Shown: positions 15,080-63,596 of the stretch, piece after piece
How the letters are laid out: every line of letters starts with the position of its first letter
How positions within the stretch are numbered: the stretch's first letter is position 1
NCBI RefSeq assembly: GCF_000003815.2
Contig: NC_049979.1
Coordinates: forward strand, 14,380,567 to 14,444,566
DNA length: 64,000 bases
From: Branchiostoma floridae
Lineage: Eukaryota > Chordata > Leptocardii > Amphioxiformes > Branchiostomatidae
Direction: 5' to 3'
Program-made: the position numbers and the translations under genes
Notes under the pieces: generated by a model
Told to the model about the DNA's origin: nothing
Seen by the model: only the letters and a program-made list of their open reading frames with translations
Database searches by the model: none

Positions 15080-15264
15080 ATGGTTCCGCCGGTCGCAAGT
15101 CTGCTGCTGCTGGTCCTGACGACTTCTTGCTCTCCCCCAGCCGCGGAGGCGTGCCCGCATGACTGCGACTGTGCCGCGGGTTCAGACCGGGGCACGGCGG
15201 TGGTATGCCGGGGTCCTGCCGTCACAGCAGTTCCCAGTAACATCCCCAACGGCACAGTCACACT
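15080..15264 (+). CDS. Receptor exon 1: signal peptide and LRR N-cap
   Basis: ATG at 15080 is followed by a hydrophobic leader (SLLLLVL) and a likely cleavage near AEA before the ACPHDCDCAAG cysteine cluster that caps leucine-rich repeats. An NGT glycosylation sequon lies near the end. The GTAAGT donor follows ACA CT, phase 2. Confidence 0.92.
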
Positions 15265-18200
15265 GTAAGTTTATCAACTTTGCTAGCATAAAACATCTGT
15301 GCTGAATGTTTAGCTAACGGCGAAGTGAATATTGGATTAACAGTTGAGTAATAGGTGGAGTATCAGTAAGTGCGGAGGTGGAGGTTAGAAGTATTTTGTT
15401 GACTTTTCCTGCTTATATTTAAACCTTGTAAATACAACAGTAATCCTAAAAACGAACAGAGTGTTCCGTAAACGCAGACCAGCATGGTACTTTTGTCAGT
15501 AGTCATTCTACTGTGCAGCACACCTACCCTTAGCAAAAGAGGCGGTGGATATCAATTTAGATTTGAAAGAGGTAAAATTGTCACTTTAACAACGTCCTGA
15601 CGAATCAAGTGTATGGAGATGTGAAGTATGCTTTTGGGGGGACTCCAGACTACGGTGGTATTAAGGTAGGTAATGTCTAGTTAGCGGGAGCCCGAAGTCT
15701 TAAACCGCAAACTACTACAGAACAGCAAGCGGTTTGTCATGGAGAACCAACACCCCGATTACATACGATGTGTGGTGTGAATCCCAATCTGGTGGCGTTC
15801 GCGCCAACTTGCATTCATTTCTGATTCATGACAACCGGAGGTGAAATTCAACGTGGTAGCATTGTATGAGGTAGGAGTCAGAATGCGTGTCAATGAATAT
15901 AAGATCAGTGAGGAGACATGTCTGTACTGGAGTTTTCTGTACTCAGTGTCGGGTTTTCCGCCATCTGAGCAATTTTTCGTCAGACGTTTCATCCATTTTT
16001 CCGTGCTCGATGAACTTCGTATCGCTATGAAATAAGCTTGGAACTGTTGCAAATCATAACACATTGTCAACTCATGGGTGCCATTTACAAGCTATCCCTG
16101 TGTGCAACTACCCCGTATTAGTACACAATACGACTGTCTCCTCCTGATTTATGGTTATATTATTGATGTCATTTCCCGCATGAACTTGTGTTCCTTCGGA
16201 CTCAGCTAAACATTAGTCCGAAACCTTGCTTTCAAGTTTTAAGTTGGTGTTCTGTATGGTCCGTTATTTTACCAGTAAGTTGTGATGCATATATCGTGAT
16301 TTTTTGTCCGCTTTGTACCTGCGCTTTTGTCCGCTGTTCTGTTATCAAGACGGTGGTGGAATTTGGTTCGAGTTGTGTGCTCAACTCCTTAATTACAACT
16401 GGCCTGTAATCTTAAGGGGCATCTGCATTTCTCTAGCTCTTTAAAGTTGCCATGAAGTGGATTGCTTTCGACATGTCAGTTACGTATACAGGTTGATTTG
16501 CCATGACCCATGTGAAACCCCACAGCTTTCCATTACAAACACTCACAACTCACCATCATTGACTGACGCAGCGGGGATATGGCAAACCCGACCGTCGACA
16601 AGGATCTACGAGGAACTTTTCTAATACAGACTCTAAGAGAAACAATCAACGAGAAACGTTTCCATTACACAACCTTGTACGACACAGACACACATCAAAC
16701 ACTGTCCTCAATCTGCCGAACCTGTCGGACTATCGTGAGGGAGTCCGTAGTTAGGTGTTTATGATTGAGGTCGGAGCTGTTTACGAGGGGTATCGGTTGG
16801 GCACACCAAACATCGCGAGCAAACATGACCCTGCAAGAGGGTACAAAGTGATAACAAGGAGGTTAATGAGTCACGAGCCCTGTACAACATGCCCTAGTCT
16901 TGTAAGCATGAAACCTTTCACCGCGCTAGATGATTACAGCAGTGCTGTATGCTGTCAGTTGGCGTGCCGTTGTGAATATGTTATCGGTGGCTGGGTAACA
17001 CTAGTAGCAATAAAATACCCCCTATAAACTTGAATTACAACGTCGATCGACTAGAGAGTACTTCTTAAAGTTCAAACCAAAGTGAGAAAAATGAAGAATA
17101 TTCCCTTATGGTACTAGGCTAACAATAGACTTCGTCTAATTCTTAATCTGTGGTGCAGTGGGTTGTGTTCTCGTCCTATTCCATTGCCTTTCGTTATTAG
17201 ACGCTGTCAAGACGGGGTTGCAAAACGTGAGAACACAGATAAGTATAGAAGATAAGAGGCTAAAAAAACAGGACTAAGATTAAAGAATACTTGAGCACAA
17301 CAGAAAAATAGCAGGCAAGTAGGGTGACAAGGAATTTAAGAATGAAATGGGCTGTCAGTTAGGAATTCAAGTGTCTTAATACAATCACACTGTCATGAAA
17401 ACAGTGTATCAGCAATGGCATTTAATGCCTGTCGGCTGAAAAAATTAGGCAGCATCTAGTATGATAGACTGTTGGTAGGAGTACCTATGCTTCAGCAAGG
17501 AGGTTATAACCTTCTTGGTTTCAGATTCTCTCGCAGTAAACAGGTCTGGTCTAATCTCCAAGCAGATCCTACGGTGCCATAAGATAGTATCAAAGCTGGC
17601 CAAGGAGTGTAGCTGGCCAAGGGAGTCAAACGGGAAAGTTTGATACTATACATTACGCACCGTGGATCTGGTTCGAGATTAGTCTGGTCAGCGATCTGCA
17701 TGCCGAACAGATCAACCAATTTCGCCTGAACGCCTCAGAATCCGCCAGGCTTAGAGCAGACACGGTAAATCGATACGTAACATCGCAGCCAAAACAAGGT
17801 AAACGCCATTTCGTTCTTCTCTGCACACTGCATTGCAGAGATGGAAATGTAGGTTTTAGCTGTATCCGGGTTCGATATCTACTTAAAGTACATTAACATC
17901 ACAAAAACTGCCACATGCGTATGGAACAACAACGTGCACAACAAAAACTCTTCTTATCCTACACATTCCCCCAGTACTTCGGTAGATTTACATTTTTAAA
18001 TGATATACTGTATTTCTAAACGTGCTTGGTTTTCCGTTGCGTCGACTTCTAACGTCTACTAGACCAGGACGGTGCAATAAAAGTTTCTTTCCGTTATCAG
18101 GTCTCTAGGCATGGGCCCAAAACAGACTCAAGTACAAGCTCGGTCTTCTGAAAACTGCTTCACTTAGATCACCGTAATGCATTTGTTTGCGGGGTATGTT

Positions 18201-21200
18201 GTAAATCTATCTGGGGAGGTTGGATAAAACGATGTTTAACGATGCACGTATAATCAGCATATAGCCTGTAATGCGGTGTACTAACACATGATGTTTGGAG
18301 GTGGATATCAAAGGCTTAGCTATGCTACAACCAGCCGCCACCACGTGCCTGTGATGCTATTGTGTTGTGTTTATGACGAGTACCGATACAGGCAGGCCAG
18401 AAACATCCTAACGGAACAATATTGATAAGTGTTGTCCTCTCAATTTCGACACTTTCCCCCTCCTTCATGTGACGTCATCTGTGACGCTCATATGGTGACA
18501 GGTGGGTGGTTGTAAAGAAGTAATTAAGCCTTACTCTCTGAACATATTAGTCTAGATTGTGCTTACTTAAATACCATCATCAGAAAAGCAAATGTCTATT
18601 TTGTAAATTGTCCATTAGCTTGAGTAGCTAGGGGTACATCTGATGAGTAACTAATAACAGGCAGTAACATCACTTTTATAACTCTGAAAGGCAGGACACC
18701 AAGTAGCAAAGAAAGCCCCAACTGTTGTTTATATGATATAACACACATGTATTTTGTCTATTTTTATAACTCGATGTAATAAGCTTAAGTGCATATGCAA
18801 TGACCGTACCAATATGTGTATCGATGACACTAAAGGCCACTCCAACTGTGCTCCGTGAATGTCATTGGTTTTGATGCCGTCATCGTTTTCTGAAAAGGAG
18901 GAACAAAGGGAACAAAAATTAGGGCCACGCCCGCACTTCTCTAAGGTGTTTATTAGAAAGTTGCCTCAACCTTGAATGGCGCTATGTGCCGGGTCACGAA
19001 GTCCAAATGCAGAGGCCATGACTGTGTTCCGAGACGACATGCATGTTCTAAGTATTGCATGTAACGTTATGCCATAAGCTGTGTGACGAACGCTACAGAA
19101 ACACCGTGAAAACGCAGTCATTTTGCCATCTGGACTGGCGTTAAGATTAGAGAATATGGCTCGTATACACTGCTGCTATAAAGAGAGGGTTATTGGTTTG
19201 CATAACATATAGGACTAGCTTTTAAAACGACGTCCTGCTTTATGATCCCCCTATAGGCACACGGCGTCTCTAACAATACCATTATCCCGTCGTTTATTAT
19301 ACTGAAGGGCGTCATATATCGAGCTATTTGTCTAAATGTGCTTGAGTATACACGGAGCTTTTGTACCTAAACAGGTGCATTGGCCACACAGAAACCTGTC
19401 ATACATCATAACAAGTGGCTGTGTTTTTTGCTTTAAACAAACACACAGGCCAACTAAGGTCACCCAGAGGTCATATCTACTCATGAATCAACAGCGCTCA
19501 CAATGAGCCCGGCTGAGACCTCAGGGCTGAGACGCAGGTCTCCGACGGGCTCTTCTTGGCTAGTCCCTAAGCGAATAAAGTTACCTAGTCTTTATAACCC
19601 ACTGTCAGATTCCTCAGCAAAAGCAATGAGAGAAGGACAAAAGGACAAACCTACTTTAGAAGCTGAATTTAAAACTAACCTTTTGACTTTGTTTGTACAA
19701 TTGGATGGCAAAAAATCTGCAATGCCAATGCTAAGAGGAGAGTAGTTCTTTCGTCTGTAAACATGAAAATAACGAATGCAATTTAGCGGCTCGTCTATAA
19801 AGAGTGTGGGCATCTGTGCAATCAGCACGATAAAATCACATGATGATAAAGAGTTCACTCCTGAACGATATAAAGCTGACCACGCTCTGAGTCAGGAAGT
19901 TACAAGTATTACCTTTTGTCTAACATTCGTCTTTTACAAAGTTATGCCTTTCGACCATTTTAGGGGAAATGGCTGCTTTTAACGTCTTGTAATCTATTCT
20001 AACTTCTTCCTTACATTCCTAAAATTGCACACACTCAAATAAACCCCACTGAGGTAGGCCCAGACATAAAGAGACCAAGATTCTACCACAGCAATAGTTG
20101 GAGCATTTCCCATTTTCATCCATATTCACCTTGTATCCGTCTCTCTGGACCTATCTAGCAAACCCCCGGTCTCAGAGCTGTTTTGTTAGAAGAAACATAT
20201 TATGTCCTGACGATAGTTTGAAGAAAGCAGCAGTAATGGTTTATGATATGTCAGCTAGTCTTCATTTTCATGCATTCCCTTCGTAGCCGTTTCTCAGAAC
20301 AGATTTACGGAAATGTTCCGAGTCAGACGTGTTCCGCGTACTTACCAGGTGGATATTAATAGCGGTCGTATCGTGATCCCTGCAGTTTGTATAGCATTAA
20401 CTGTTGCTAGTATCATGCTTAACCTTCTGCATGGCGAGTCACTCGATATGCCAAGTTTCCCTCTCGCAGTGCATCCCCGGAGAGTTGGTGAGACGTGATG
20501 AGAATGATCGGCTCGGTACAAAGAGAATCCCACTCAGAAATGTCATCATTACCTCATCATCTTTTGCCATCTGCTCTACATCAAATAGAAACAGTAGCTC
20601 TAAAGCTACACATGGATGGCGTATGTTTTAATAGCTTTGAACGTAGGACGTCATTAGGAATGTAGCAAACAGCAATTGTTGGTCTCCATCGAAGTCCCTT
20701 ACAGCCTGAAAAATAGAAAAGTTCTACCTGCTTAACAAACATGGTCACGAAAGTCAAAATATGACTACCGTTCCCTTGCTTGTACGCATTCTGAAAAGGG
20801 GTTTCAACTGTGAATACTTGTCTTGTTCAGTATTGTGTTGAATTTGTCCTTGATACAAATGGGCATTAGAATGAAGCTGTCGTTCTGTCCCCTTGAAGAG
20901 ATATCGGCCTTGCAGGTCGCACATTTTGCTGCCGTGTCTTCCTGATGAGACGCAGCTTCCCAAATCTCCGAGCAGATATATAACTTGTCTCTCCGGCCAT
21001 TGTAATGGAAGTCAGTGCGTGATGTACTGATATTGAGTAAATCCCCATTTAGGGTAGACCACATATCCGGACCAGCCAACACGTAAGGGCTCAACGTCGC
21101 AGTTTAATGTACCAACTCTGACTGCCTCGTGAAGCACCGATTCGCCACCCCTGGACTTTCATGCTAGGACCTTTTTGTCCCAGCAGCAGAACGATAGAAC

Positions 21201-24200
21201 ATTTGTTTAAATGACTTCCCTTCGTAAAAGCCCACCGGAATATGACAGAGCTTAACTGCAAGAGTTCAGAGCCATGAAGGGATTAACCTTCACTTTAAAT
21301 CCCTTAGCTGTGCGACCCTGCGGTCGATAGCGTTCAGGGATGTGGATGATATTTGATTCATACTGAATGGATAAAGACCTCGCTTGCACATTTTTCCACA
21401 CAAATATGTTGAACAGTTAACAGATACAAAATAAAATCAACTATTTTTATTCAAATTAAATGTACTTGTGTCTTACCTTGCAATGAGCCTTCAGACATGA
21501 GTTTGCAAATAAAATCGTTCATTCATTCTAACATTCTAAAATTTCCAAATCGATATCTGATTCCATTATTGTTAGGGTTTAGACATCCATACCATTTGTG
21601 TGTGTGTGAGAGAGTACCAACCCGCAAGGCGTGCTGACGGCATATATCTCTGACATAGATGATTGGGATTTCGGTAAACAGCAGAGAAATTCAAGGAAAC
21701 GCAATGAAAGAAAGATTGGATGCAGATGTAGGGTGTTGTACACGATTATTCTTTATTACCTAGAACAAGAAGTTGTGCATGTATTCCGGGCCGTGCAGGG
21801 TATTACCTACTGAAGCGGTAAGGCACGGTGGCTGGTGATGATGAAATATGCACACCTTCCAGACCGCACGACGTCAGCGGTAATCATGACCGATGTTCCA
21901 GTAACAGGTAATCGCAATGTATGATTTAACACCAGAGAAGTAGAACAATTTTTCTGACTTCTGGGATCAAAGAGTCTTTACATTAATGGAGTTCTGCTCT
22001 CATGTGCTTTACATAACACAAGAAGTTAAGCTCCACCAGGCTTTGTTTCTGAACAAATTAAAGTTGGCCAAAAGCCCTGATGGCGTTTGTCCTCAGATGA
22101 GGCAAATTCATTAGTCCGCTGGAAACCGTTTACTTAGTCTTCTAAATTGCGTCCTTTTTGTGTGCTATTGAACGCATTACTCTTTCACGCCGCTCGGACG
22201 CCATGAGTTAGACATGAATCACGATTGGAAGGAACTTTATACTTTGCTTTAGGCCCATCTTGACGGCCGTGTTATTAGCCGAGCTCTTTTGTCATATGTT
22301 CTTTACCCCCCGATCAAAGGTAGCCACGGTCAACACACAAAACTGCCGGAAATGCGGAGGTCTATCATTGCTTCTCAAAATTATCGATCAGACCATCGTG
22401 AAAGCTCATACATAACGCGGAAAAAATACCTCCTTTGCAGCACAACAGAGTACTTTTAACTTTTGGTGGAAAGTAAGTAGTGAAAGTTTAGCGATAAAAG
22501 GTGCCATATGGCCGCTAGCGGTGCAAAGATGCTTTACTGTCTTTGTGCCCAAAAAATCTGCGGCGCAAAATCACTGCCAGTGATTCAAATGTAGTCCATT
22601 TTGCGGTCTCCGTTTGTTTGCGAGTACACAGTGGTGAGAAGGAGCAGATGGTTGGTAACAGATGTGAATAATTTAACATCTAGTCTGTTTGCACGTGTGC
22701 TGTTTGGTTTCTCATCTACACTCATGGCGGTTATATGGGTGTGTGGCATGTTTTATTGTACTGATTAGACAGACCAAGTACATCGATCATTGTGCCGCTA
22801 TTATGTAGTTTGCTTTCTCTGACACAAAAGAAATGTCCTGCTTTATCACCCATATTTAGTGCCTTCTTCGGGATGACTAGCCCACTACTATGTACACGTG
22901 TCCTCACCACAACATTGGTTTTACTCACCAAACAAATCAGTTTCATTTCCTCACCAAAAACATTGGTTTCTGTCACCACAACATTGGTTTCGTGCCTAGT
23001 TCACTCAGCTGAAAATCTGATCGGTGATTACATGTTGGTGTTGTAATCAAATTTTACCTAGAACATGTATATGGGTGAACTTTGCATTTTGGTTACATCA
23101 CTTAACCGGCAAACAGCCATTTGGCATAGCACACCGGCTCTTCACTGGCACCTTGACAAATACAATGGACTTATTGCGAGTTCCATACCACTAGTTAAAC
23201 CTTTCGTCACAGTAGCATACCGTAACGACATGTACCTGCTTCTCGCACCAGGGAGTTCCACCAGACGGCCATCCCCAGCTTGACGGCCGGCGGGATGCCA
23301 ACGGCGGCGCTGAGCAACCTCACCTTGATGTGAGTATTTTCTTGTAACGATTCACACAAACTCGGTGTGCGCTTCTCTGGTTAACAGTACATTAATCGTC
23401 CCCTCCCGCTGCAAGTCTCCAAAGTGCTTGCCAGCCACGAGACTTTGAAACTTTCAGGGTTCTCAAAAATAAGTAGAACTTTGATATCCCCGATGTCTTT
23501 TGCAGCAGCAGCCACTAAGGCTGGCTGATACTTTCTAAAGGTCGCTGGTATGATCTTGTATCCTCTATCTTCTGTTTTCTTTAACATGTAGGTGAAAGAA
23601 ATCTTGTATAATTTGACGGATATGACACATTGTATGATGGAAATTCTGATGGAGAAGAGGTTCCGTCGTCAGCACTTTATGCAGATCTTATCTCTTAAGT
23701 ACAGCGATGCCGAATTCAGGGGTGCCTAAGAAACATACAATTACCGAATACATACTAATTTCACTGAAATCATACGAGCTTTTGCGTCTGATCAATCAAT
23801 TTGTATGTTTCTTGTGGTAGATCGTATGAATGGTATGAATTCTGTGAATTCCGAAAAATACGTATGAATACTTCGGCAGCCCTGGTCTACCAGCCAGACT
23901 GTCGTTTAAAAATGACATACTGTAGTTATCAGCTAAACTGCGCGCCGATGGAGATTTACTTGAATCTTCTACAACAAGGTAATTTTTACTTCCATATCAC
24001 TCGATACTTCCTCCCCTGCAGAAAGTTCCAAGAAGACACTTCATTAGCCCAGATCGAGCCGGGAGCCTTCGACGGCCTCACCAATCTGCAGTACATGTGA
24101 GTAACGGACTGGAACTAACTCTATCCATTACTGTGTAATAAGTGTAACATATCATGTGCACGTTACAGACGCCCCCTCCCCTTCCTGTACACAGACACCC

Positions 24201-27200
24201 ACACAGTTATCGACTTCTGGTGTTGTAACAGACTTTCGCACGTAAAAGCTGTCAGACTTAATCTGCGCGAGAGAAGAACTGACACGCACAAAGTTTGATG
24301 AAGCACTGCCCCCTAGGCCTGGGTATGTCCAACACAATGCTAGTCTGGGATTATGAGGGGGAGGTCGTGATGTTTTCTTGGTGTTTTTCTAGACGGAGGG
24401 GTTGTGTGTTGGAAAACTTGTCAATCCAGAAAACGTTACAAGCCTTTGAATTCCGTAATCCGCATCTGCTGCAGGATTACCGAGACCTCCAGATGTTTGT
24501 GGAAACAGCACGCCTGACTTGACTAGACCTACTGGAGCAGGGCTGTCTGCTCTTTAAATAGAATGTGTCGATTAATTGAAAACGAAAAACCCTTGCATCT
24601 TCATCAAAGTAATACGCCCACAAGCATGCGCAGCCAAAGCAAGAACATATTTATTGCAGTTGAGGTATTCCTGTTCTGTAGGGTTGATGTATATCACTGC
24701 ATATTCCTATCATCTACAGTGAGTTCCGGAGAGTCAGCAGTCTTCATAACCTGAGGAACTTTACAGGAACCATTCCTTCACTGAAGAAGCTGTGAGTTTG
24801 CTTTGTCAAACTTCCAACAGGCGACTGTGTATACTTTTGATTCCACTATAGTTAATAACGCCCCCCCCACCCAAGAAAAGAGTGCTCCAATGAAAATGCA
24901 AAATACATACATGCATATTGCATCATCGCCTGATCTCGTCAGAATGAAACAGATATTTACTTGTTTTTATAAATCTGTCTTATCCATGAAAGAGAGATAT
25001 CAGGGTTGTGCACGAAGCTGTGAGATTTCTTGATGATACGATGACGTGTGTTTCATTATGCTTTTTATTATGCTTTTCACGACGATAAAGCTGCCATGCT
25101 TATTTTCCGGCAGGTCTCTCGTCAACTGCGGACTGACATCCATTCCAGACTTCAGTCGTTTGATGTCTGCCGAGCTAACCGTGGAAATGTGAGTACAAGC
25201 GGGCGAGGAAAATGAAATTGGCTTTCTTAGTGTTTTTTGGACGCATTTACTGCCGGGGAGCCGGGTAATGATTCCCTAACAGCACATTTAGCCGAGGAGA
25301 GGTGTTGGGTGTAAACGAGCCTTTCCAGTGTAGGATATCGTCATTTAGTATAGACGCAGTCGCTAAACACGGAACCTCCAAATAGCGCACTCTGAAAGGA
25401 GCTGACGTTTCACAAAGGTGATGAATATAAACGTTTTTTAAAACTCAAAGTTAGCAGGAACATGTGTACAGCCTTACATTAAGTATTCTTTTTGTACAGT
25501 AGTTTGCACCAAGAGACTGAGACTCAGTACTGTCGTGTTAATGCTATGGCAGCATCATAACAGTTAAAGGATGTTCAACAAAAGTGGAGTTGATTGAGAA
25601 GCCTCCAGCCAGTTTTATTGTACCATGCCGACACGATTCTCTATAATCATTTTTTCTCAAAAAGGCTTTTGCTTCATTTCCTCGGATTTTGTCCAAAATC
25701 CACATTTACGTGTTGCTGTGTCTGTCTCAGCGCCTCATTGCTAATGAGACCTGCCTCTGTATCTTCCACAGCGATCTGGAGTTTAATCAGATCACATCGG
25801 TCCCGACCAGAGCCTTCAGCAGCTTACCCGAGAACGTCCACACCGTGTAAGTTACACTGTTCAAGCTACAGCCATGTAGCTGTTGAAATGAATAATGTTC
25901 AAAAGCGTTGAAGGGAATGGCGAAAATGTAGAACGTCGGGAAATAAGCTGATCCAGCTCCAAAGTCGATCCAGCTCCAAAGTCAATAGTATTACTATAAT
26001 TTATATGACCCTGTCAGAAGCTATGCTCAGACTTGGACATCAACCATTGTTGGTCTGGACATAAACACCGTCCATGGAGTTTTCAGTCGTGGTAGACATA
26101 CATCGCTGTACAGAAGGGTAACGATCAGCACATAAAATTAACGACGTCTAACCGTTCACTGCCGACATTCCGGATGAGCAGTAAAGAGAGAGTCAGTCGC
26201 TGCCAATACAAATCACACGGCTACAATGTAACTTGCTTTGGTTCGATGTGCTTTGCTTGTCATCAATATATGGATGTGGATACACTTCCTCAAGATAGCT
26301 AAATTATCATGTCAAGAACTGAAAAACATGCCAAATAGCTGCTACTCAAGCAACTGAACTGGAAAGGAGTTTGGAAACAAGTCAAAATTTTTCGAAATAA
26401 TATCCGGTGGCTGGAGTAACTGCTATTTGCACATTTTAACCTGGATGTCTAACCTTCATCGAAGTACTGAAAACATGGTTCACGAGACCCATCTTGCTAT
26501 GATATCAAGACGCACGAAATTAACTTCAACTTATCCTGGCTAACTTTAATGTTAAGTATTGTTTTCTGTACTAAGGAATTGTTGTTGGTCTTCTTGGAAT
26601 CGTATAGTCATAAAGAAGTATACCTAGTACTAAAACCACCTGTCATGTTCCTTTCCAGAGAGCTAGAGTTTAACCAGATCCGAAGTGTGGCATCCCGAGC
26701 GTTCTCCGGCAGTAACATCTACAACCTGTACGTGTCGCAAGTTAAAGTCTCTGTCATGTACACTACTTCTTAAATTGCATCTTCTAAACTTTTCCGGGAG
26801 AGAAAATCGCAATCTTATTTTGTTGCCCCTTTGCTGGCGCGCGTGGGAGGATTACGCTCCAGTAAAACAGGTTAAGGTTTTCACTCCCAGGTTCTGCTTG
26901 GAAATTACGTAGCCCGCCATGGAAGCAAACTCTGATTACAACTGTGCCAGATGTTGCAGGAACGGGATTTGGGGGTCCCACTGTAAACATTTTCCATTAA
27001 GCATTGCTTCCTGTGTGCTTTAAAGGGAAGAGAGGTCAATTACGTCAAGAACTAGCTGCTTTAGTCTTGAACTTGTGGAAACTAGAATAGATATCCTGTA
27101 AGAAACTACCGAAACACAACAGCTATCTGTAGAAGTTCCCTTCATGAAAGTCCGGGCCATCTGTTCCTCCCAAATGCATTATACACGATTTATGTCATAG

Positions 27201-30200
27201 GCTAAATTTTAACCAAACTGTCAACTTAGAATAGGTTTCCTCTCTAGCTATATTGGTATTTTGCCTTCCTATTATTTTCTTATTATTTAGAAAGAATAGT
27301 AGTTGCATTGAATATTGATAGCTGGGTATGAAAGAATTTTAGATATGATTGTTTGGCCATATGGATGACATCCTCATTTTATTGCCCCTAATATTATTTT
27401 CTGAGATGAAATACAGCACTTCGGTACACACCACTGCACTATGTTTCACTGATATACAATGGTACAAAAATACGTTCGCACATATTGATGCATGTAACTA
27501 CTAATTACCAGTCATTATATATGCACAGAGTTAAATTTCTAGGTAGAGTATAACACCCAAGACTGATAGATTTAAACTTGGAATTTAAATGACTCCCGGC
27601 CCACAGATACCTGCAGTACAACAGCCAGTTGACGTCTCTCGCTGATGACGCCTTTGAGGGAATCAGGCAGCTGACTCGCCTGTAAGTTATCAACACTTTT
27701 TTCAGTTGTTTTGTATGTCACCAGGAGTTTTATTATTCATGGATTGTCAAGCCATGACGCGTTAGGTTGCTGTACGAACAAAGTCGTCTGTTTTATGGTC
27801 TATGCATGTAAAAGATAAAAGACTTTTAATGCACTGTCATTTCAGCACCAAGGCCAGAAACACCCCACGATCTCCCAATCTTCATATCACGATACCATAA
27901 AAAGGATATCTGACGTCTGAAGGACTTTTATGCATGTAATGCATTTTCTATTATCAGATTAGGTCTCCATTTCTGTACAGAGATGGATTGTCAGACGTGC
28001 GTAGCGTTACATCAAACTTTTTCCTAGTGTGTGTGAGTTAGCGCGTAAGTTGTCAAACTGTCAAACTTAATAATAAACACAACACTTCAGAACAAACTTT
28101 TGAATCTACGTCTAACTAGTCCTCTTTCATCCTTTAGTAATTAAACCAGACAACGCTAAGTTGCAGATGCTTCATGTAGCAAATTTTTTGTCCGAAACTT
28201 TGACAAATTCTCCCCTAAGTGCCCTGCCCCGTGGTACTCGGCACATAGTTTTAACGATGGGGTCCTTACTTCATCAGCACAGAACACAGGTCACCAATAT
28301 ACGCATCATCCGCGGGCCGCCTGGAGGACATGTTGAGTAGGATGACGCCCGTAAACTCTCAGCCTTGTGACTATCAACACTCTGTGCCATTTCCTAGGTC
28401 GGTCTGTAAGACACGATTGCACAATTTCCTGCCTCCATGAGTATCATTACGCACCCAATCTCGCGCCTTAGCCATCATTACCGGCGCTTCACGGATATCC
28501 ATTAGATCTACTTAGACAGGGGCTTTTAGACGACACCAACTATACTTAATAAGCCTGGCATGCTTGCGATGTTTGAGCTTCAAGAAGTCGTTTTATTACA
28601 TCACGAGATGAACAATTTTACGTTATATACGCTCACGCGCATACTTATCGTGACATCTGCTCAAAATTACAGACGTCAAGTGTGACGTGTGAAATTTCAT
28701 CCTACGGTAGTTTTATAAAGGGCTTGAAATATTATTGCAGAGACGCATTGACAAGCTACGAGCATTGTTGCGTAACGAAGCTGATCTTCCGAAAGAAAAG
28801 AGATTACATTTCTTAGGAAAGACGGACTGAAATAAATCCGCGCGCGGTGTGAAGGGAAAATAAAGTGTGTGGTCAAATCCACCGACAGCTGCGCGAGAAG
28901 GCATTTGAAATTGTTTGCAAAGATGAAGGTTACAAACGCCGCTTCTACACAAGCTATAAGTCTGCTTCTTGTCCTTTAATGGGGTTCACGCCCCTGTCTG
29001 TGCGGCACGTGATGGATCGCACCATGTTCTTAGACAGGGATTAAGTACGCACATTAACGTCCTTGCTATCATTGTGGGCACTACCACAAGACTTATCATT
29101 GAGGAGAAATGTCAAGAGGTTTAAACCAGAAGCCATTAATTTTTGCATTATGAAATGCACAAGGACGTCACTGCAAGATATCCCGAAAGACATCATTTTG
29201 AAACGATTCCGTGATTTATGAGATGCACACTTGTACTCTGCTTGTGGTAAGCGCGTCGGTTCCATTTGATGGTGTTTTAAAAGATCTTGCAATGGAGAGA
29301 AAGGTCAACAGCTTTCAAGCATAAGCCATTTATAACTGTCGTGGATATTGAACAGGTATCTTCGCATGTAGGACGTCCTTTTTCAAACTATGTAATGATG
29401 TGTGCGATGTTCTGGGTGTAGGGATAGATTTGATCATCCCATTTGATGGTGTTATGTCTGAAATGAAATATAGTGATTTCCTTGTGCTCTGTGGAGTAAA
29501 TGATGTTAATGGTGTTAGTTACATGATGATATCAATTGTAAACTCAAAGTGAAACTAGATAGCAACCTTTCATTTCGTGAGTAGGTAAACCTTACCTAAA
29601 TATTCTTTTTAGACGTGTAATTTGTTGGCATCTATAGGCAGTTAAACGCACAATTGGTTTTTAGAAATAGTTATTATAAGGTTGACTTCATTGGTGCTTA
29701 TATCATAGCAGATAGCAAAACTTTGAGTGCAAGTGGAAGTGGACCATACTTATGTTTGTCTCATCTATCGCTTTTATCAGGGGCGAAACACATAGACAAT
29801 TTGTACATTAACGTGGGGCAGACCAATTCTAGCAAACATGTAGAATAAAATTACCACTAGTTACCATGCCATGCGTGCACGAAACTTTAGGCAATATCAC
29901 AACACGCTACTGTTATGTCTAATCAATCTACTCACACATTTACGCGAGGTTATGGGCCACAAGAACCAGGTAACCCCGAGCGTCTGCCACACAACATATC
30001 CGAGGGCTTTGTGCAGGTTTCATTTTGAATGTTTATTTTTCTATTCTGTCTTTCTTTTGTCTGTCTGTCCGTCTACACATGGCGGTAGCCTGAATGGCGT
30101 TGATATGAACAAAAAAGCACACATATACACACGCATACATACATACATATACAATCTGCATAATCCTGAAATAAGTTAGCCATCATTACATACTAGTGTC

Positions 30201-38913: not shown

Positions 38914-39021
38914 CTACCATTCAGCATCTCCTGTAGCCTTCTGGAACACGTAGTCTTTCCCACCAAGGTTCATAATGCCATCCTTCAGGTGAAACTTCCA
39001 CTTGTTCTTGCTCCGGTTGAT
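38914..39021 (-). CDS. GTF2A1: GTF2A1 last exon (beta-barrel C-terminus)
   Basis: It encodes INRSKNKWKFHLKDGIMNL to GDAEW and TAG. The acceptor is TTCAAAG. This C-terminal strand region contacts TBP in the known TFIIA structure and is nearly invariant in animals. Confidence 0.97.
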   Translation of the reverse strand: MNRSKNKWKFHLKDGIMNLGGKDYVFQKATGDAEW

Positions 39022-42000: not shown

Positions 42001-43172
42001 TATAAAAATGGACCCGTATGTCATCTCCCTGGGTCTGTTATGTCTCTCAACTCTCACCTGCATACAGCACACCTGTGAACTTCTCACCTGTATGTGCCTG
42101 GGCATGGTGAGAGAAGCCTCCAGCTACCAGGTGGACATCAGGATTCAGACCCTCCACTGCCTTGGACTGCAGCAGCTTGGTCTCCCATACCTGGAGCAGA
42201 TCAAGTACAGTCCACATGGTTTACCACGAAATTGTCCATTTGTATGNNNNNNNNNNNNNNNNNNNNNNNNNNNNNNNNNNNNNNNNNNNNNNNNNNNNNN
42301 NNNNNNNNNNNNNNNNNNNNNNNNNNNNNNNNNNNNNNNNNNNNNNAATCCTACAATTTTCAGTCCAATTTGTATGTTTCTTAGTGTGTATTTTATACAA
42401 TTTGTGTTGTGATTTCATGTTCATGATGTAGGTGTAAACAGCAAATGTCGTTATCTTACTTCCTGCTAACTCTGGTGCAAGTACAAAAATTAATTTTTTT
42501 CCTCATCAAATTGTTGTCTTGAAATGTCTAGAGTACATGGCCATCAAGTTCTTGGGCTTAAGCTGAACCAATAAAGTGACTGTTTTTACACTGCACTTGT
42601 GCCTCAAAGGGGTTGCCAGCTATTGGCTGGTCACACCATTTCTACACTCCCTTTCCCACCTCACTCTGCAAACAGAATGGTACGACCCGGTCATCTGATC
42701 TGCAGATCTACCAACAGCCAATCACAGGATGAGTCCAGCGGCTTATGCAAATTTGCCACAAAATATAAATGGCGACAGGCTTTATGCAAATTCACTGACA
42801 GCACAGGCAAAGCCAGATCCGTGGCGGAGTGACCTGCATATCCAGGAAAGTCCAGTGGACTAGGCGGCACTGACGTACGTGTGATATCGCCATTTTGTTT
42901 GGCTTGGCGCCACTCCTGATAGATGTTACCTCTTGGATCGTCCTTGGAGGAATTTGGGGGGTCATATAACGTTACTGGGTGTAAAATATGGCAATTTTGG
43001 GGCATCTTGGGCAGTTCGTGAGTTACTACCCAACGTTTTTTTACAGCTTGCAAACGTTACACTCACATACCTGCTTGAGTTCTTGCAGAACTTGTTCGTC
43101 GACTTGTTCGTCGAGGAAGGCTTCCCTTACGTTGTTGATGACATCGTCGATAACACTCCTATACAGCTTGGA
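38914..43172 (-). CDS. GTF2A1: Transcription initiation factor IIA alpha/beta precursor (TFIIA-alphabeta), 5' incomplete
   Basis: The large TFIIA subunit binds TBP and DNA at pol II promoters in the nucleus. Exons on the minus strand are 43172-43071, 42190-42088, a tentative 41722-41645, one from within the 41423-41522 gap to 41384, then 41036-40925, 40697-40606, 40282-40172, 39988-39848, 39437-39348 and 39021-38914. The last six sum to 654 nt in frame to TAG. In order the protein has the N-terminal SKLYRSVIDDVINNVREAFL helices, a Gln/Pro-rich linker, a QVDG Taspase-1 type cleavage site, an Asp/Glu tract, EPLNSEDDVSDDDP, VVVCQYER and KNKWKFHLKDGIMNL to the final DAEW. This order matches animal TFIIA-alphabeta. 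The exon with the start codon is not certain; a 30-nt candidate lies at 43471-43500. Stonin sits upstream on the same strand. Confidence 0.95.
39348..39437 (-). CDS. GTF2A1: GTF2A1 exon: EPLNSEDD / VVVCQYE
   Basis: 90 nt, phase 0 on both sides, CTCCAG acceptor and GTGAGT donor. It encodes EPLNSEDDVSDDDPTDLFD and NVVVCQYER, the start of the conserved beta subunit domain. Confidence 0.97.
39848..39988 (-). CDS. GTF2A1: GTF2A1 exon: QVDG site and acidic tract
   Basis: 141 nt, phase 0 on both sides. It encodes ATTTAHPIIQVDGANDTSDE followed by an uninterrupted Asp run and a mixed Asp/Glu/Lys tract. QVDG (39950-39961) matches the Taspase-1 recognition pattern that separates alpha from beta. Confidence 0.96.
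40172..40282 (-). CDS. GTF2A1: GTF2A1 exon: Gln-rich linker
   Basis: 111 nt, phase 0 on both sides. It encodes TIVQQPSGSQTQPVQQQGQQ and continues to IVQVQSL. Composition fits the poorly conserved glutamine-rich centre. Confidence 0.92.
40606..40697 (-). CDS. GTF2A1: GTF2A1 exon: Gln/Pro linker
   Basis: 92 nt, accepting phase 1 and leaving phase 0. It encodes QTTMSFPGYQPGQVYIQQPG and ends IQIQQPQ. Acceptor TTCAG, donor GTAAGA. Confidence 0.9.
40925..41036 (-). CDS. GTF2A1: GTF2A1 exon: Ala/Gln linker
   Basis: 112 nt, phase 0 in and phase 1 out. It encodes TSAASSGSATVALPQGQVVY and continues to LTLPQ. The donor GTGTGG is weak, but the junction keeps the frame. Confidence 0.85.
41384..41422 (-). 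CDS. GTF2A1: GTF2A1 exon truncated by the assembly gap
   Basis: Reading out of the gap on the minus strand, LAYAAQLGNGVDL runs to a GTGAGT donor at 41383. It leaves phase 0, exactly what the next exon at 41036 needs. The 5' part of the exon is hidden by the Ns. Confidence 0.7.
41423..41522. other. Assembly gap (100 N) inside GTF2A1
   Basis: The round length suggests a gap of unknown true size. It removes the 5' part of a linker exon and perhaps a whole exon. Confidence 0.99.
41645..41722 (-). CDS. GTF2A1: Tentative GTF2A1 linker exon
   Basis: The acceptor ATTCAG is followed by codons for SRIQQSPRGGLPTAGPTGWQ and a possible donor at GTAATG. The entry phase (1) matches the preceding exon. The 3' boundary and the link across the gap are unverified. 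Confidence 0.5.
42088..42190 (-). CDS. GTF2A1: GTF2A1 exon: end of N-terminal helical domain
   Basis: 103 nt, phase 0 in and phase 1 out, CTCCAG acceptor and GTGAGA donor. It starts VWETKLLQSKAVEGLNPD, which follows the ELKQ of the previous exon just as in vertebrate and fly TFIIA. Confidence 0.95.
42247..42346. other. Assembly gap (100 N) in a GTF2A1 intron
   Basis: It lies in the intron between the two N-terminal exons, so no coding loss is expected. Confidence 0.99.
42614..42791 (+). promoter_or_regulatory. Promoter-like cluster: CCAAT boxes, two octamers and a TATA-like box
   Basis: On the plus strand an inverted CCAAT (ATTGG near 42614) and a CCAAT at 42718-42722 are followed by ATGCAAAT (42745-42752), ATATAAAT (42763-42770) and a second ATGCAAAT (42784-42791). 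It lies in a GTF2A1 intron, antisense to the gene. No coding frame follows. Confidence 0.4.
43071..43172 (-). CDS. GTF2A1: GTF2A1 first recognised coding exon (N-terminal helices)
   Basis: 102 nt, phase 0 on both sides, CTCTTAG acceptor and GTATGT donor. It encodes SKLYRSVIDDVINNVREAFL and ends VLQELKQ, the dimerising helices of TFIIA alpha. In vertebrates a short start exon precedes this one, so the ATG must lie further upstream on this strand. Confidence 0.96.
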
Positions 43173-49500: not shown

Positions 49501-49596
49501 ACGGAATGAAAAGACCAGTATTGCCTCTACATTCAGTGCTGTTTTCACTTTCCACTTTTTAACAGGACAGTACATGCATGTCCTTTGTACATGTAC

Positions 49597-49618
49597 AACA
49601 CACACACACACACACACA
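49597..49618. repeat. CA dinucleotide microsatellite
   Basis: Eleven CA units. Confidence 0.95.
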
Positions 49619-49839: not shown

Positions 49840-50144
49840 TTACTCAGGACGGCTGTTCAGTGGTTCGTCTAGAGCAGGATTCCCAGACTTTGGGCAAGGA
49901 TCTGGATCCTCCTCTCTCTCAATTGCCACCTTGTAGCTGTAGTGTGCTTTATACCTCACCCACTTCTCGGGGATAACTGGCGCAGCTAACGGGTTGGACA
50001 CGGAGATGGACCGTACAATACTCTTGGAGGCGGTGGTCAGGGGCATGGTGAAGTCCACCTCAAAGTGTGGCCCAAGTGATGTGGGGATGTCGAGCTCACT
50101 AGCCATGTCAATTCTACAGATGAGGGTTTGGGTGGAGTATGCTC
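49840..50144 (-). CDS. Stonin last exon (end of mu-homology domain)
   Basis: The acceptor is CCCCCAG. It encodes AYSTQTLICRIDMASELD, then VDFTMPLTTASKSIVRSISV and WVRYKAHYSYKVAIE, followed by a short acidic/Pro tail and TAA. The final beta strands match the stonin mu-homology domain closely. Confidence 0.95.
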
Positions 50145-59100: not shown

Positions 59101-62100
59101 GCCAAGGCAACATTAAGTGTTATCATACACATGCAAAGTGAGGATTTGATGGTACTAAATTATTACTTTCCACTGAAGCATAAAATGTCCTAATTTTTAT
59201 GCTTCATAATCATTGACGCAAAAAACCATAACACCTAAGCATAGCAGAACATGGCAATCATGCAGAATCAATGAAACGGTGATCTACCAGCACTGCCTAA
59301 ATATTCTGCCCCATGCACTGGAAAGACATTACTCACACCTCACACCCTATCTTCTCCTACCAGACCTGTAACATAAGCTATCTCCCAACAGCTGGCTTGT
59401 TCCACAGACTACATTTAGATGCAGCACGGCACACAGACTTGTAAAACGTTCTGTTGGGCACTGACAGATTGTCCTGCTTGGCAATGAGCATCCTTGTGAA
59501 AGGCTGTTTTTATGATTACAGGCGTGTACCTGGCATTATTTTCAAACAAGTTATAGACTTGATGTGTCTGTGATAGAGGGCATAATGACAGGTACAAGCA
59601 TTTGTGTTGTTTACACAGGTACTCATCAACATTCTGAATAGGTTAAGTGCTAATTTGATATGCCTGGAGCACACTGCATATTTTTATGACTGAGATGTGT
59701 GGCAGACTAAGATGCTCAACTTTGGTCAAATAATTAGATTTGTGATTCAAGCATGTCTTATTTGGCATTAGTGTCATTAAGATCTATACATGTCTTGTAT
59801 ATTTGTTGTGTTAAAAACTCGTGGGGAAGAATAGCTTTGATCAGTGTACTAATTGTGGACTGAAACAAACACCATTCAAACAGAAGCTTGAGATATCCTA
59901 GCACTTGCAGGGGAATTTACACAATTAGGAGATTGAACTGTGCAGCTGCTAGTTATAATATAAGTGATTGATAATGCTTGGTCCCTTGTGGTCTCTCTGG
60001 ACAGGTGATCAGATGAAACAGAAGTCATGAGTAAAGAAGTTAATTTGTTGATGAACCATCATGAGGTCCATAATGGGCACGTCTGGAGTTTATCTGATAT
60101 ATCAGAATTCTGGTAAATATGCCATAATCACCTCTGACAAAGATAATATTAATATCTCTGGGTAACTATGCAGCCCAAAATAAATCTCACCCATTATCAA
60201 ATAACCTTTGAATCAGTGTTGTTTCTCTTAAAATACTGTTTAATGTGCATAATACTGATATGCCAATGGCATGCCAACTTAAGAGCCTAAGAGTTTAATG
60301 ACATGGCAGTAAAGTTGATCACCGTTTCACTAATTCAATCAGCAGTAAACGATGTCACAGATGATACAATGCCTAGTTATCAGCCAAACTCTTGTCACAT
60401 TTGACAAGCACAACCTCCAAAGCCTACCTGTGGATGTAGCGGTGCTTGAAGATGCAGGGGACTGTTGTGCCTCGGCCAGGATCCAGTCATCCTTGGCAGG
60501 AGACACTGGTGTGTGGGGGGTAACAGAGACCGTTGGAATGGCTGGCTGTTCCACAGCACTCCCCTCTGGAAGACCAGGTTCTTCAGTTGGTGTCTTTGCA
60601 CTGCAGGGTGCCTTCTTTTCTGTGAAGCTTCTTGTGGCTGGGGGAGAAAATACCCAGATTTGATAACACAACAACATGGAGAGATATTTCCATGTTAGAA
60701 TTTTGCTAGATTCTGAATTTCATAAATCGTAATCACAACATATGTTTATGTATTGAATGAAATACATTAGCGACCGGAAAACATGGTAACTAAAATCAAA
60801 ATGACTAAAATGCTCATTTATGACGGGACCAGAATGAATTTGTCGTCTAGTCTTGAAGGCAAGCTATGATTTGTTGTAATCCTTTTCATCCATCAAACCT
60901 CACCAAAGAGTCATCCTGGTGACGATGAAGTATTTCACTACTAAGGTTCTGCCAGGTATCAGTAATCCTGTCATTTGATAGAATTTTGTTGCTCAAGAGG
61001 AAAAAAGCTAGGCATAATTTTGTTATCTTCATTAACAAAATTGGTGTGTAGAAAATATAAGAATCAGATCGAATTACATGTATGCCAAAGGGTAAGTTAT
61101 CAGGTGCTGACATGTCTGAAAGAAAAAAGAACAGACCTACCCAGCTCAATCTAGATATTCACCAGTACAGTTTTTAATCTAGTGAATGTAAAATGATAAA
61201 TGGTAACCAGCCGAAGGCGAGGTGGAGGTCATGCTGATATCTGCTGGTATTGACCCAAGTTGGACAGCGGCTGGACTGCTGATTTTCAAAACTGGTTGTT
61301 TAACCTTCCCAATGTCAGGCGTTATGACACTTGGTTTTGTAAACCCAAGGAAGTTAATATATGAGCTCATACCTCCTTGGTAAACCCTAGTAATGGGTGG
61401 GTTACACACAGGTGTCTGTGTGAGGTGAAGACACATGCTAATACACTTCAATGGCCCACTAGTAGTCTACAGTATTGCTACCAAGGAAGAAATACACTAT
61501 TTCATGACCATTTGTATATGGTCACAGAAAATACAACCTGACATCCATTGTTTTGCAGTAATGCATTGTAGTACAATCTTAACACAAGGCTGACAGTAAT
61601 GCTTGGAGTACAAGGGCTGACAGTAATGCTTGGAGTATCTGAAAGCAAATGAATATCTGGCTAAAGGAAATGGTATATCCTTTTAAAAAATGCATCTTTC
61701 AACAATTTTATGTGGGCTGAAATAAGAGGATCACATAATGACTGACATTTTATTTCCAAACAAAGTGTTTACACAAGGGCTGACAGTAATGCTTGGAGTA
61801 TCTGAAAGCAAATGAATATCTGGCTAAAGGAAATGGTATATCCTTTTAAAAAATGCATCTTTCAACAATTTTATGTGGGCTGAAATAAGAGGGTCACATA
61901 ATGACTGACATTTTTTTCCAAACAAAGTGTTACTTTTGACTGCATTGTCATAAAAAATTTATGCCACATGAATTAAATATTTCCCCTGTACCCATAGATT
62001 GATTAGCCAATGCTCTATATAACTCTATTCTATCCCCAATGTTGTACATATATTGCTCTAAGAGTCAAGATTGCTCAATTTGTCATTTCTTTACACCTTT

Positions 62101-63596
62101 TATCTAAATCTGGAAGGTTTTATCCCATTTTAAAAAGAGTTATTTTCTAGGGGTTTTATCTACCAGTAGTTCATTTTAAAAAGAATTGTTTTGTTCAATG
62201 TTATTCTTTATAAAACTGTACTTTTGATTTTATTGATACAGTAAATGATGCTATCAAGTTTATGGGATCATTTCCTGAAGTTTTGTATTTTGACCCTATC
62301 CAGCTGACTTCTGATGGGGTCATTGGTAATGTGGCAGTCTATGACTAATTAATTATTATGCAGATTATGCATTGTTATGCAGATGAGAGTAACTAGCTGC
62401 TTGATTAGATCTCTGCAAGCCATTCAAATTAGACCCTTTGGTAGTACATTGTATTTCTCTTTTGTCAGGGTTTAATAATACCTGTTTACTTTGAATAAAG
62501 CTTGAAAAGCATGATAAAATATGTCTTCCCAAGAACTAACAATAGGGGGCTCCTTATCAGATGTTTTTTGAGAAAGCTTGCAGCAATAGACATGCAAGGA
62601 GCTGCATGATACAACATAACCAGCTGCTGTACGTGCCTGCAAAGGTGGTGCTGAGAGTTGTAAGTTGTTACCCCAGGTGCGGGTACAGATATGAGTACAG
62701 AAAAAAAAGGCGAGGGATATCATCATCTGAAAGGATATCAAATGCACAGTGACACACCCACCTTCTTCCAAACTGGCACTTGTCTGCAGAGGGGGAGTAT
62801 CGGTATCACTCTTCTGTTTCTTCTGAGGGTTCTGAGTGATTTTCTCATCCTGTGAGTCCAGATTCCTCGTGGTCTGCATGGATGGGCTGCGGGCTACCTG
62901 CTCCGCCACTGGTGGTGAGGATGGGGTGGTGGGGACGGACTGTGAACCAGACTGTCTCTGTGTTTCAGCTTCACCCTCTACAGCTGCTGCGGCACCCCCC
63001 TCCCCATCAGTCAGGCCTCCCTCCCCACTAGCCAAACCTGTCACACTAATAGTCTTCACTGCTGTGCTATCTGCATCCTTTGCAGGTGTAGCCTCCACCT
63101 CCATCGCCTCTGTCACAGCAGATTCTGCACCCACCTGTCCTCCCTGTACTACCTCCATTCCTTCTGTATCCTTTACTGTGTCCTGGTCGGACGTTTCCCC
63201 TTGTTCCTGATGCATTTCTGCTCCCGTCTGCTCGCCCTCCGCGGCAGCACTGTTAGCTTGTGTTGGCTCATCATCGCCCATAACATGATCCTGCGGCCCG
63301 CTGTCCCTGGGGCCATCTTCCTCTCCCTGTGCACCGTTATTATCACCGCTAACAACGCCCCCAACTCCCTCACTCGTGCTTACTCCTTCCCCTGCTGTAC
63401 TATCCATTATCACCTTTTCTGAGTCTTCCCCATATTTTTTCGAAGTCAACTGTGCTTGTTGGTCACCTCCCACTGTTTCGTCCACAACCTCCGAGCGCTT
63501 TTCCTCCTCCTCCCGGGGCGATCCCTTCTCCGCATCGCCGCTAGCTACTGCGGTTTGGCCGCCAACATGGGCGGTTTCGCCTCCGTTTTCTGCCAT
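49840..63596 (-). CDS. Stonin (stoned B / STON1-STON2 family endocytic adaptor), 5 exons
   Basis: Stonins are cytosolic adaptors that link synaptotagmin to AP-2 and Eps15 during clathrin-mediated endocytosis. Exons on the minus strand are 63596-62762, 60637-60428, 55072-51077, 50683-50612 and 50144-49840. They sum to 5418 nt (1805 residues) and every intron is phase 1. In order the protein has an acidic N-terminal region (1-348), two WxxF sequences (WVPF, WIGF), many DPF, DLF and NPF motifs, four FED(A/S)F repeats, a stonin homology domain beginning near 1307 (GWYLMLRVPEKKK) and a mu-homology domain from about 1440 to the end (EDEITVEVTDEFRG, RLPVPDLWMKY, KYEYAFRAIVWKI). It is about twice the length of vertebrate stonin 2; the extra length is in the disordered N-terminal part. 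Whether it is closer to STON1 or STON2 cannot be said by eye, and it probably predates that split. Confidence 0.93.
50145..51076 (-). other. Last stonin introns around the 72-nt exon
   Basis: Apart from the cassette-like exon at 50612-50683, nothing recognisable is present. Confidence 0.6.
50612..50683 (-). CDS. Stonin 72-nt cassette-like exon
   Basis: CTTGCAG acceptor, GTAAAG donor, phase 1 on both sides. It encodes VPFTGNVPFTGKPLPFTASK and a few more residues, with VPFTG duplicated. It inserts 24 residues between RLPERNQ and AYSTQTLICR of the mu-homology domain. Skipping it keeps the frame. Confidence 0.75.
51077..55072 (-). CDS. Stonin main exon (3996 nt)
   Basis: The acceptor CTGCAG precedes ATCCCTCAAGC and the donor is GTGAGT at 51076. 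It encodes residues 349-1680: Ser-rich start, WVPF and WIGF, a long Pro/Ala/Ser linker with eight DPF and two NPF motifs plus DLF/LFA repeats, four FED(A/S)F units, then the stonin homology domain and most of the mu-homology domain. The open frame continues upstream to 55277, but that part is hydrophobic intronic sequence before the acceptor and is excluded. Confidence 0.95.
55073..60427 (-). other. Stonin intron 2 (5.4 kb)
   Basis: It is AT-rich, with no coding exon and no clear repeat family. Short frames (for example 58370-58555 +) lack support. It may hide alternative promoters or regulatory sites that cannot be recognised by eye. Confidence 0.55.
60428..60637 (-). CDS. Stonin exon 2
   Basis: 210 nt, CCCCCAG acceptor and GTAGGC donor, phase 1 on both sides. 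It encodes TRSFTEKKAPCSAKTPTEEP and later SPAKDDWILAEAQQSP. The 5' phase matches the donor at 62762 and the 3' phase matches the acceptor at 55072, which ties the acidic first exon to the stonin body. Confidence 0.8.
60638..62761 (-). other. Stonin intron 1 (2.1 kb)
   Basis: It contains a 163-bp tandem duplication (61611-61932) and a coding-like minus-strand segment near 61205-61390 without convincing splice sites. Otherwise it is AT-rich. Confidence 0.6.
61583..61932. repeat. 163-bp tandem duplication
   Basis: Copies begin with CAAGGGCTGACAGTAATGCT at 61611 and 61774 and are nearly identical (A/G in AGG(A/G)TCAC, a small change in the T-run). A 28-bp partial copy precedes them at 61583-61610. 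The high identity suggests a recent event or an assembly artefact. Confidence 0.9.
62762..63596 (-). CDS. Stonin exon 1 (acidic N-terminal region)
   Basis: ATG at 63596 starts MAENGGETAHVGGQ; an in-frame TGA lies 18 bases upstream, so this is the first possible Met. 278 codons rich in Glu, Gly, Asp, Ser and Gln follow, with a basic NPQKKQKSD stretch near the end and a GTGGGT donor after GAA GAA G. Low complexity prevents assignment by homology. Membership in the stonin gene rests on matching splice phase and the lack of any other partner exon. Confidence 0.72.

What the first reader, a model, noticed from the sequence alone, without database searches (positions are those of the whole stretch)
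15080..63596. Single ancestral copy of the receptor-GTF2A1-stonin block found twice in vertebrates
The sequence shows a glycoprotein hormone receptor (+), then GTF2A1 (-), then stonin (-), adjacent with no other recognised gene between. Human 14q31 has TSHR (+), GTF2A1 (-), STON2 (-), and 2p16 has STON1, GTF2A1L, LHCGR and FSHR in the mirrored arrangement. Conserved order and orientation for three functionally unrelated genes implies the block predates vertebrate genome duplication and was copied whole. It offers an outgroup for dating how TSHR, LHCGR and FSHR split.
Basis: partly seen in the sequence, partly recalled or inferred. Interest (0 to 1): 0.85.

Follow-up and report, generated by a model that had tools for sequence, protein, structure and literature searches.

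The report
Ancient hormone-receptor gene neighbourhood, single copy
An invertebrate-type genome segment carries, side by side, one copy each of a hormone receptor, a transcription factor and an endocytosis gene whose relatives sit together twice in mammals, so it probably shows what the chromosome looked like before vertebrate genome duplication; this is deep but ordinary gene order, useful for rooting the thyroid and gonad hormone receptors.

Summary
A glycoprotein hormone receptor (+, 15080-32930), a TFIIA alpha/beta gene (-, 38914-43172) and a stonin (-, 49840-55072, inferred 5' exons to 63596) lie in this order; a codon scan, which misses many short exons, shows nothing in the two gaps. 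By chromosome band, TSHR (14q31), LHCGR/FSHR (2p21) and MRPL49 (11q13.1) belong to three parts of one published four-part paralogon from chordate proto-chromosome 11, which also holds the ligand genes GPB5 and GPA2. A single-copy, pre-duplication neighbourhood is the best reading, and receptor and ligand genes seem to share one ancestral chromosome. Trees agree but weakly: the receptor falls outside TSHR+LHCGR+FSHR in 4 of 5 rooted trees, and LHCGR+FSHR pair in 6 of 6, but joining it to TSHR was rejected in only 1 of 5 AU tests. Other animal assemblies and the species could not be checked. Conserved microsynteny of a known kind: useful, not startling.

The parts
600..2036 (+). MRPL49 (mL49) gene, at least three exons: about 600-776, 1152-1286, 1890-2036 (stop)
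   Evidence: PDB mL49 hit E 6.4e-10 for the first piece; tblastn 1.7e-10, 3.6e-13, 2.3e-12 with partly recalled MRPL49; Pfam Img2 1.8e-27 on the joined pieces
15080..32930 (+). glycoprotein hormone receptor gene (type A LGR), 9 exons found, 950 aa
15080..15264 (+). receptor exon 1: signal peptide and LRRNT-like start
23252..23329 (+). receptor LRR exon (TSHR exon 2 counterpart)
24022..24096 (+). receptor LRR exon (probably TSHR exon 4 counterpart)
25114..25188 (+). receptor LRR exon (TSHR exon 5 counterpart)
25772..25846 (+). receptor LRR exon (TSHR exon 6 counterpart)
26659..26733 (+). receptor LRR exon (TSHR exon 7 counterpart); donor uncertain
27607..27681 (+). receptor LRR exon (TSHR exon 8 counterpart)
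30427..30594 (+). receptor exon 9 counterpart, ending in the conserved CCAFK
30887..32930 (+). last receptor exon: hinge with GGGGW repeats, 7TM domain, long C-tail
38914..43172 (-). TFIIA alpha/beta (GTF2A1-type) gene: exons about 43172-43071, 42190-42088, 41036-40925, 40282-40172, 39988-39848, 39437-39348, 39021-38914; first short coding exon not found, join between second and third unsolved
39848..39988 (-). TFIIA exon with Taspase1-type site IIQVDG and acidic run
   Evidence: motif IXQL(V)D/G from PMC8410044
49840..55072 (-). stonin: main exon 55072-51077, small exon 50683-50612, last exon 50144-49840
60429..60637 (-). probable 5' exon of stonin (coding signal only)
62763..63596 (-). probable first coding exon of stonin, ATG at 63596 (coding signal only)

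Best explanation
The window shows a single-copy ancestral neighbourhood, MRPL49 - glycoprotein hormone receptor - TFIIA alpha/beta - stonin, on what genome reconstructions call chordate proto-chromosome 11. Two rounds of genome duplication copied it with its chromosome. The receptor-TFIIA-stonin trio survived on two copies (human 14q31: TSHR-GTF2A1-STON2; 2p21-p16: LHCGR/FSHR-GTF2A1L-STON1), the receptor on the 2p copy later doubling in tandem; on the 11q13 copy MRPL49 and the ligand gene GPA2 survived while the trio was lost. The thyrostimulin ligand genes and their receptor therefore probably come from one ancestral chromosome. Shown: the genes, their order and strands here. From papers: the mammalian neighbours and the paralogon. 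Inferred: the duplication history and the losses.
For: Order and strands. Mammalian neighbours: dog region genes listed as CEP128, TSHR, GTF2A1, STON2, SEL1L, with two likely pseudogenes also there (PMC3375262); human STON1-GTF2A1L/LHCGR/FSHR locus (PMC5543064); FSHR-LHCGR tandem at 2p21 (PMC4536197). Paralogon: [GPHalpha] with chr2 18-68 Mb, [GPB5] with chr14 27-106 Mb, [GPA2] chr11 61-67 Mb, [Ghost] chr19 36-49 Mb, fitting chordate proto-chr. 11 (PMC3280201); a second paper puts genes around the amphioxus and human ligand locus in linkage group 11 (PMC4079206). MRPL49 at human 11q13.1 (PMC1459182), within one 0.79-Mb sheep region with GPHA2 and NRXN2 (PMC10298528). Trees: window receptor outside the three human receptors in 4 of 5 rooted trees, LHCGR+FSHR together in 6 of 6; GTF2A1+GTF2A1L 74/83 with the window outside; STON1-STON2 46.4% identical against 43.6% and 37.1% to the window.
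Against: Few taxa, weak support: the branch that sets TSHR+LHCGR+FSHR apart from the window is never starred. One of 5 rooted receptor trees (LGR4 outgroup, mixture model) puts the window inside, support 47/28; window+TSHR was rejected at 0.05 in 1 of 5 AU tests, window+LHCGR in 3 of 5, window+FSHR in 4 of 5. TFIIA alternatives not rejected (p 0.116, 0.181), and by raw identity the window is nearer to GTF2A1 (75.2%) and to GTF2A1L (69.9%) than these are to each other (68.1%). A random gene would fall somewhere in the paralogon about 7% of the time (216 Mb of some 3,100; arithmetic), so MRPL49 alone is modest evidence. Placement of TSHR and MRPL49 inside the table's intervals is by band. The table of PMC1459182 prints the MRPL49 gene list also in a 9q34.3 row, apparently by shifted rows. 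Species not identified.
Confidence: 0.82

Rival explanations
1. The vertebrate pair of blocks arose by a small segmental duplication of a few genes, not by whole-genome duplication.
For: Only three families are seen in both copies here; nothing in the window itself tells the size of the duplicated segment.
Against: The chr2 and chr14 regions are parts of a four-part paralogon of 197 gene families (PMC3280201); MRPL49 falls in a third part.
Confidence: 0.06
2. The genes came together independently in this lineage and in vertebrates.
For: Gene order in other non-vertebrates was not testable here.
Against: Same three families in the same order; chance of order 1e-9 for named neighbours (arithmetic, after the fact); a fourth neighbour also maps to the same paralogon.
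Confidence: 0.03
3. The receptor is an orthologue of TSHR alone, the TSHR/gonadotropin receptor split being older than this lineage, with the other copy lost here.
For: Window+TSHR not rejected in 4 of 5 AU tests; nearest by path to TSHR.
Against: 4 of 5 rooted trees place it outside all three; identity to TSHR, LHCGR and FSHR is alike: 51.9, 52.5, 50.7%.
Confidence: 0.09

Closest known systems
Mammalian TSHR-GTF2A1-STON2 locus (human 14q31)
   Same: Receptor, TFIIA large subunit and stonin listed one after another (dog; human strands recalled)
   Different: Listed between CEP128 and SEL1L; here MRPL49 lies upstream. CEP128 and SEL1L were not searched for with queries of their own
Human STON1-GTF2A1L-LHCGR-FSHR locus (2p21-p16)
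   Same: Same three families (mirrored strands recalled)
   Different: Two receptors in tandem; GTF2A1L/ALF is testis-restricted; here one receptor was seen
[GPHalpha-GPA2-GPB5] tetra-paralogon of PMC3280201
   Same: Human counterparts of the window's genes fall, by band, in three of its four parts; built with amphioxus homologues
   Different: The passages read deal with the ligand genes; I did not see the receptor, GTF2A1 or stonin loci placed there, and its gene lists (supplements) could not be opened
Single invertebrate LGR-A / amphioxus LGR1
   Same: Invertebrates have one LGR-A; tethered amphioxus GPA/GPB activates LGR-1 at very high doses (PMC6752823, PMC8522476)
   Different: No sequence of that receptor was available to compare

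Membership tests
Glycoprotein hormone receptor (type A LGR) | 7TM domain closest to TSHR/LHCGR/FSHR, not to LGR4-6 or RXFP | tested here: met
   50.7-52.5% identity against 26.8-31.0% to LGR4, LGR5 (recalled), RXFP1; E-values
Glycoprotein hormone receptor (type A LGR) | LRR ectodomain in short phase-2 exons, one last exon for hinge and 7TM | tested here: met
   phase 2 was a search criterion and the vertebrate phase is recalled; one LRR exon not found
Glycoprotein hormone receptor (type A LGR) | conserved internal-agonist segment before helix 1 (FNPCEDIMGY in the human receptors) | tested here: met
   FNPCEDITGY; its role as described in PMC6752823
Glycoprotein hormone receptor (type A LGR) | sulfated tyrosine of the hinge (TSHR Tyr385) | tested here: not met
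   0 Tyr in the 60 residues before NPCED, against 4, 3 and 4 in TSHR, LHCGR, FSHR; called a feature of all GPHR in PMC4536197, which itself finds it missing in teleost LHR1, so not a strict requirement
TFIIA alpha/beta (GTF2A1) | conserved N- and C-terminal domains with acidic middle | tested here: met
   Pfam TFIIA 3.8e-58
TFIIA alpha/beta (GTF2A1) | Taspase1 site IXQL(V)D/G | tested here: met
   IIQVDG in exon 39848-39988 (motif)
Stonin | stonin homology domain plus mu-homology domain | tested here: met
   Adap_comp_sub 2e-39; alignment through both domains to recalled STON1/STON2
Block inherited from before vertebrate genome duplication | same genes linked in other non-vertebrate deuterostomes or protostomes | not testable with these tools
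   no such genomes in the collections; the genome search did not complete
Block inherited from before vertebrate genome duplication | each protein outside the vertebrate paralogues | tested here: inconclusive

The most novel reading that the evidence does not exclude
Receptor and ligand genes of the thyrostimulin system came from one ancestral chromosome, and the receptor-TFIIA-stonin core has been held together for some 500 million years, in this lineage and in both vertebrate copies, by a working constraint, such as shared regulatory DNA or stonin-into-TFIIA read-through (recalled for human STON1-GTF2A1L), rather than by luck.
Probability: 0.2. Interest if true: 0.7.

Novelty: new member of a known kind. 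Interest (0 to 1): 0.45.

Why it matters
A single-copy outgroup locus lets the split of TSHR from the gonadotropin receptors be tied to a genome duplication instead of to a gene tree alone. With the published pairing of the paralogon parts ([GPHalpha]+[GPA2] against [GPB5]+[Ghost], PMC3280201) the chr2/chr14 split would be the first round, so TSHR and the LHCGR/FSHR ancestor would date to 1R, in keeping with two receptors in lampreys. The MRPL49 link extends the block to a third part of the paralogon and puts receptor and ligand genes on one ancestral chromosome, a testable statement on how the system arose.

Tried and rejected
Considered that the stonin ORF might be a general adaptor mu subunit: rejected, since it aligns over the stonin homology domain too and is 43.6% identical to recalled STON2; AP mu chains in PDB reach E 1.4e-14 at best (different search spaces, and no stonin appears among those 24 hits). 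Considered further genes at 1-15 kb: apart from MRPL49 the codon scan left 6906-6983 (-), 17.6 bits, near an N run, and five ORFs chosen there gave no Pfam hit at E 0.1; most ORFs there were not tested. Rfam (gathering) and ARAGORN gave nothing. The missing LRR exon was sought among 166 phase-2 AG..GT candidates, 45 best printed: not found. My first codon scan had one training exon out of frame and was redone. My first TFIIA tree had two wrong letters at exon junctions and was redone: supports and p values moved little. Paper searches for the block outside vertebrates: no listed title or abstract start and no passage read names it; lists were capped (for example 25 of 81, 15 of 185, 15 of 65), the library lacks most subscription journals, and supplements could not be opened. 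Searches served MRPL49 position and read-through. Papers: passages of PMC4079206, PMC4536197, PMC4227674, PMC5543064, PMC3375262, PMC6752823, PMC8699336, PMC8522476, PMC1459182, PMC10298528, PMC6504862, PMC8410044, PMC7054216; passages and sections 15 and 16 of PMC3280201; all others only as search listings.

Full report
What is there. The plus strand carries a glycoprotein hormone receptor. Its last exon (30887-32930) holds a hinge, seven helices and a long tail; among PDB sequences it matches human TSHR at 1.6e-120, LHCGR at 2.4e-115 and FSHR at 1e-110, and LGR4 only at 1.8e-38. Eight upstream exons (15080 to 30594) complete an open 950-aa frame, with LRR_8 at 1.9e-20 and a weak LRRNT. Every junction is in phase 2, but the exon search asked for phase 2, so this is partly built in. 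The alignment shows one leucine-rich repeat fewer than in TSHR; the counterpart of exon 3 was not found among 166 candidates. On the minus strand, 38914-43172 encodes the TFIIA large subunit (Pfam 3.8e-58), ending in a 36-residue stretch 83% identical to human and holding IIQVDG, which fits the Taspase1 motif given in PMC8410044. Seven exons were drawn; the join between the second and third is out of phase, so the model is incomplete. Also on the minus strand, 49840-55072 encodes a stonin, mostly in one exon of 3,996 bases.

Neighbours. In the two gaps between the three genes no segment reaches 12 bits in a codon scan. The scan is blunt: trained on two exons of this window, it picks up 9 of the 22 exons that I assign to the four genes. 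So large-exon genes are excluded, small ones are not. CEP128 and SEL1L, the mammalian flanks, were not searched for as such.

Comparison with vertebrates. A dog mapping region holds, as listed in the text, CEP128, TSHR, GTF2A1, STON2 and SEL1L and two likely pseudogenes (PMC3375262); a human locus is named STON1-GTF2A1L/LHCGR/FSHR (PMC5543064). FSHR and LHCGR stand in tandem at 2p21 and are taken to come from a local duplication; in the elephant shark they were not found in tandem, which the authors say questions the origin of the tandem (PMC4536197).

The paralogon. PMC3280201 defines a four-part paralogon that fits chordate proto-chromosome 11: [GPHalpha] with chr2 18-68 Mb, [GPB5] with chr14 27-106 Mb, [GPA2] on chr11 61-67 Mb, [Ghost] on chr19 36-49 Mb; 197 gene families, 187 recovered in amphioxus. 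PMC4079206 likewise puts genes around the amphioxus and human ligand locus in linkage group 11. TSHR at 14q31 and LHCGR/FSHR at 2p21 belong, by band, to the second and first. MRPL49 is at human 11q13.1 (PMC1459182; the same gene list is also printed in a 9q34.3 row, apparently by shifted rows) and lies with GPHA2 and NRXN2 in one 0.79-Mb sheep region (PMC10298528), so it belongs to the third. The four genes of the window thus map to three of the four parts. A random gene would hit some part about 7% of the time (arithmetic on the table's intervals), so MRPL49 alone is modest evidence. The same proto-chromosome carried gpa and gpb, the ligand genes. That placing is mine; I could not open the paper's gene lists, which may already contain these families.

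Trees. Rooted 7TM trees: with LGR4, LGR5 and RXFP1, the window is outside (TSHR,(LHCGR,FSHR)), supports 92/96 and 89/92; AU p 0.032, 0.022, 0.0135 against joining it to TSHR, LHCGR, FSHR. With one outgroup at a time (LGR4 or RXFP1) and two models, 3 of 4 trees agree and one puts TSHR outermost (47/28); window+TSHR is not rejected in any of the 4 (p 0.237, 0.087, 0.303, 0.152), window+LHCGR is in 2 of 4 and window+FSHR in 3 of 4. LHCGR and FSHR pair in all 5 rooted trees (at the starred level in one, 96/92) and in the four-sequence tree with ectodomain that I rooted on the window (93/93), where the other pairings are not rejected (p 0.081, 0.086). TFIIA, 113 columns: GTF2A1+GTF2A1L 74/83; joining the window to either not rejected (p 0.116, 0.181), and raw identity is higher between the window and each human protein (85/113, 79/113) than between the two (77/113), as a fast GTF2A1L would give. 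Stonin: STON1-STON2 204/440 identical, window-STON2 189/433, window-STON1 159/429, with no outgroup, so only suggestive. STON1, STON2, GTF2A1L, LGR5 and the fly TFIIA were recalled and not verified.

Dating. In PMC3280201 the chr2 and chr11 parts pair against the chr14 and chr19 parts (bootstraps 100 and 99). If that holds, TSHR and the LHCGR/FSHR ancestor parted in the first duplication. This is an inference from their tree and not a result of mine.

How it works. The locus needs no mechanism of its own: working genes, kept in order. Whether a constraint holds them together is open. Stonin and TFIIA run the same way here, with stonin first, as in both vertebrate blocks by recall, and a joint human gene name STON1-GTF2A1L exists; read-through is a possible reason, untested here.

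A difference worth noting. The receptor has no tyrosine in the 60 residues before NPCED, where TSHR, LHCGR and FSHR have 4, 3 and 4, so the sulfated tyrosine described for these receptors (PMC4536197, which also finds it missing in teleost LHR1) is absent. Instead there is a stretch of GGGGW-like repeats.

Limits. Species was not established: base composition (about 42% G+C) fits amphioxus by recall. At 52% identity to human TSHR in the 7TM domain it is no ordinary vertebrate TSHR, which is reported at 80-93% across species (PMC6504862). No other animal genome could be read. Verdict: a true, informative case of deep microsynteny; a new member of a known kind. On rechecking I lowered confidence in the main reading slightly (0.83 to 0.82), raised the TSHR-orthologue rival from 0.08 to 0.09, because the weak support had been understated, and corrected the TFIIA tree.

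Noticed in passing
   Followed up: yes
31200-31400 (+): Hinge of the receptor holds glycine-rich GGGGW(P) repeats over an 18-base tandem repeat (31232-31319) and lacks the tyrosine that is sulfated in human receptors.
   Followed up: partly
32350-32930 (+): Receptor C-tail is about 190 aa long with a serine run, much longer than in human TSHR.
   Followed up: no
23330-24021 (+): No counterpart of the second LRR exon (TSHR exon 3) was found; lost, diverged, or hidden.
   Followed up: partly
61610-61931: A 163-base unit repeated twice in tandem at 98% match, within an inferred stonin intron.
   Followed up: no
7105-7241, 41423-41522, 42247-42346: Runs of N (assembly gaps); the last two lie inside introns of the TFIIA gene.
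   Followed up: no
6906-6983 (-): Isolated segment with codon-like signal (17.6 bits) near an N run, no assignment.
   Followed up: no
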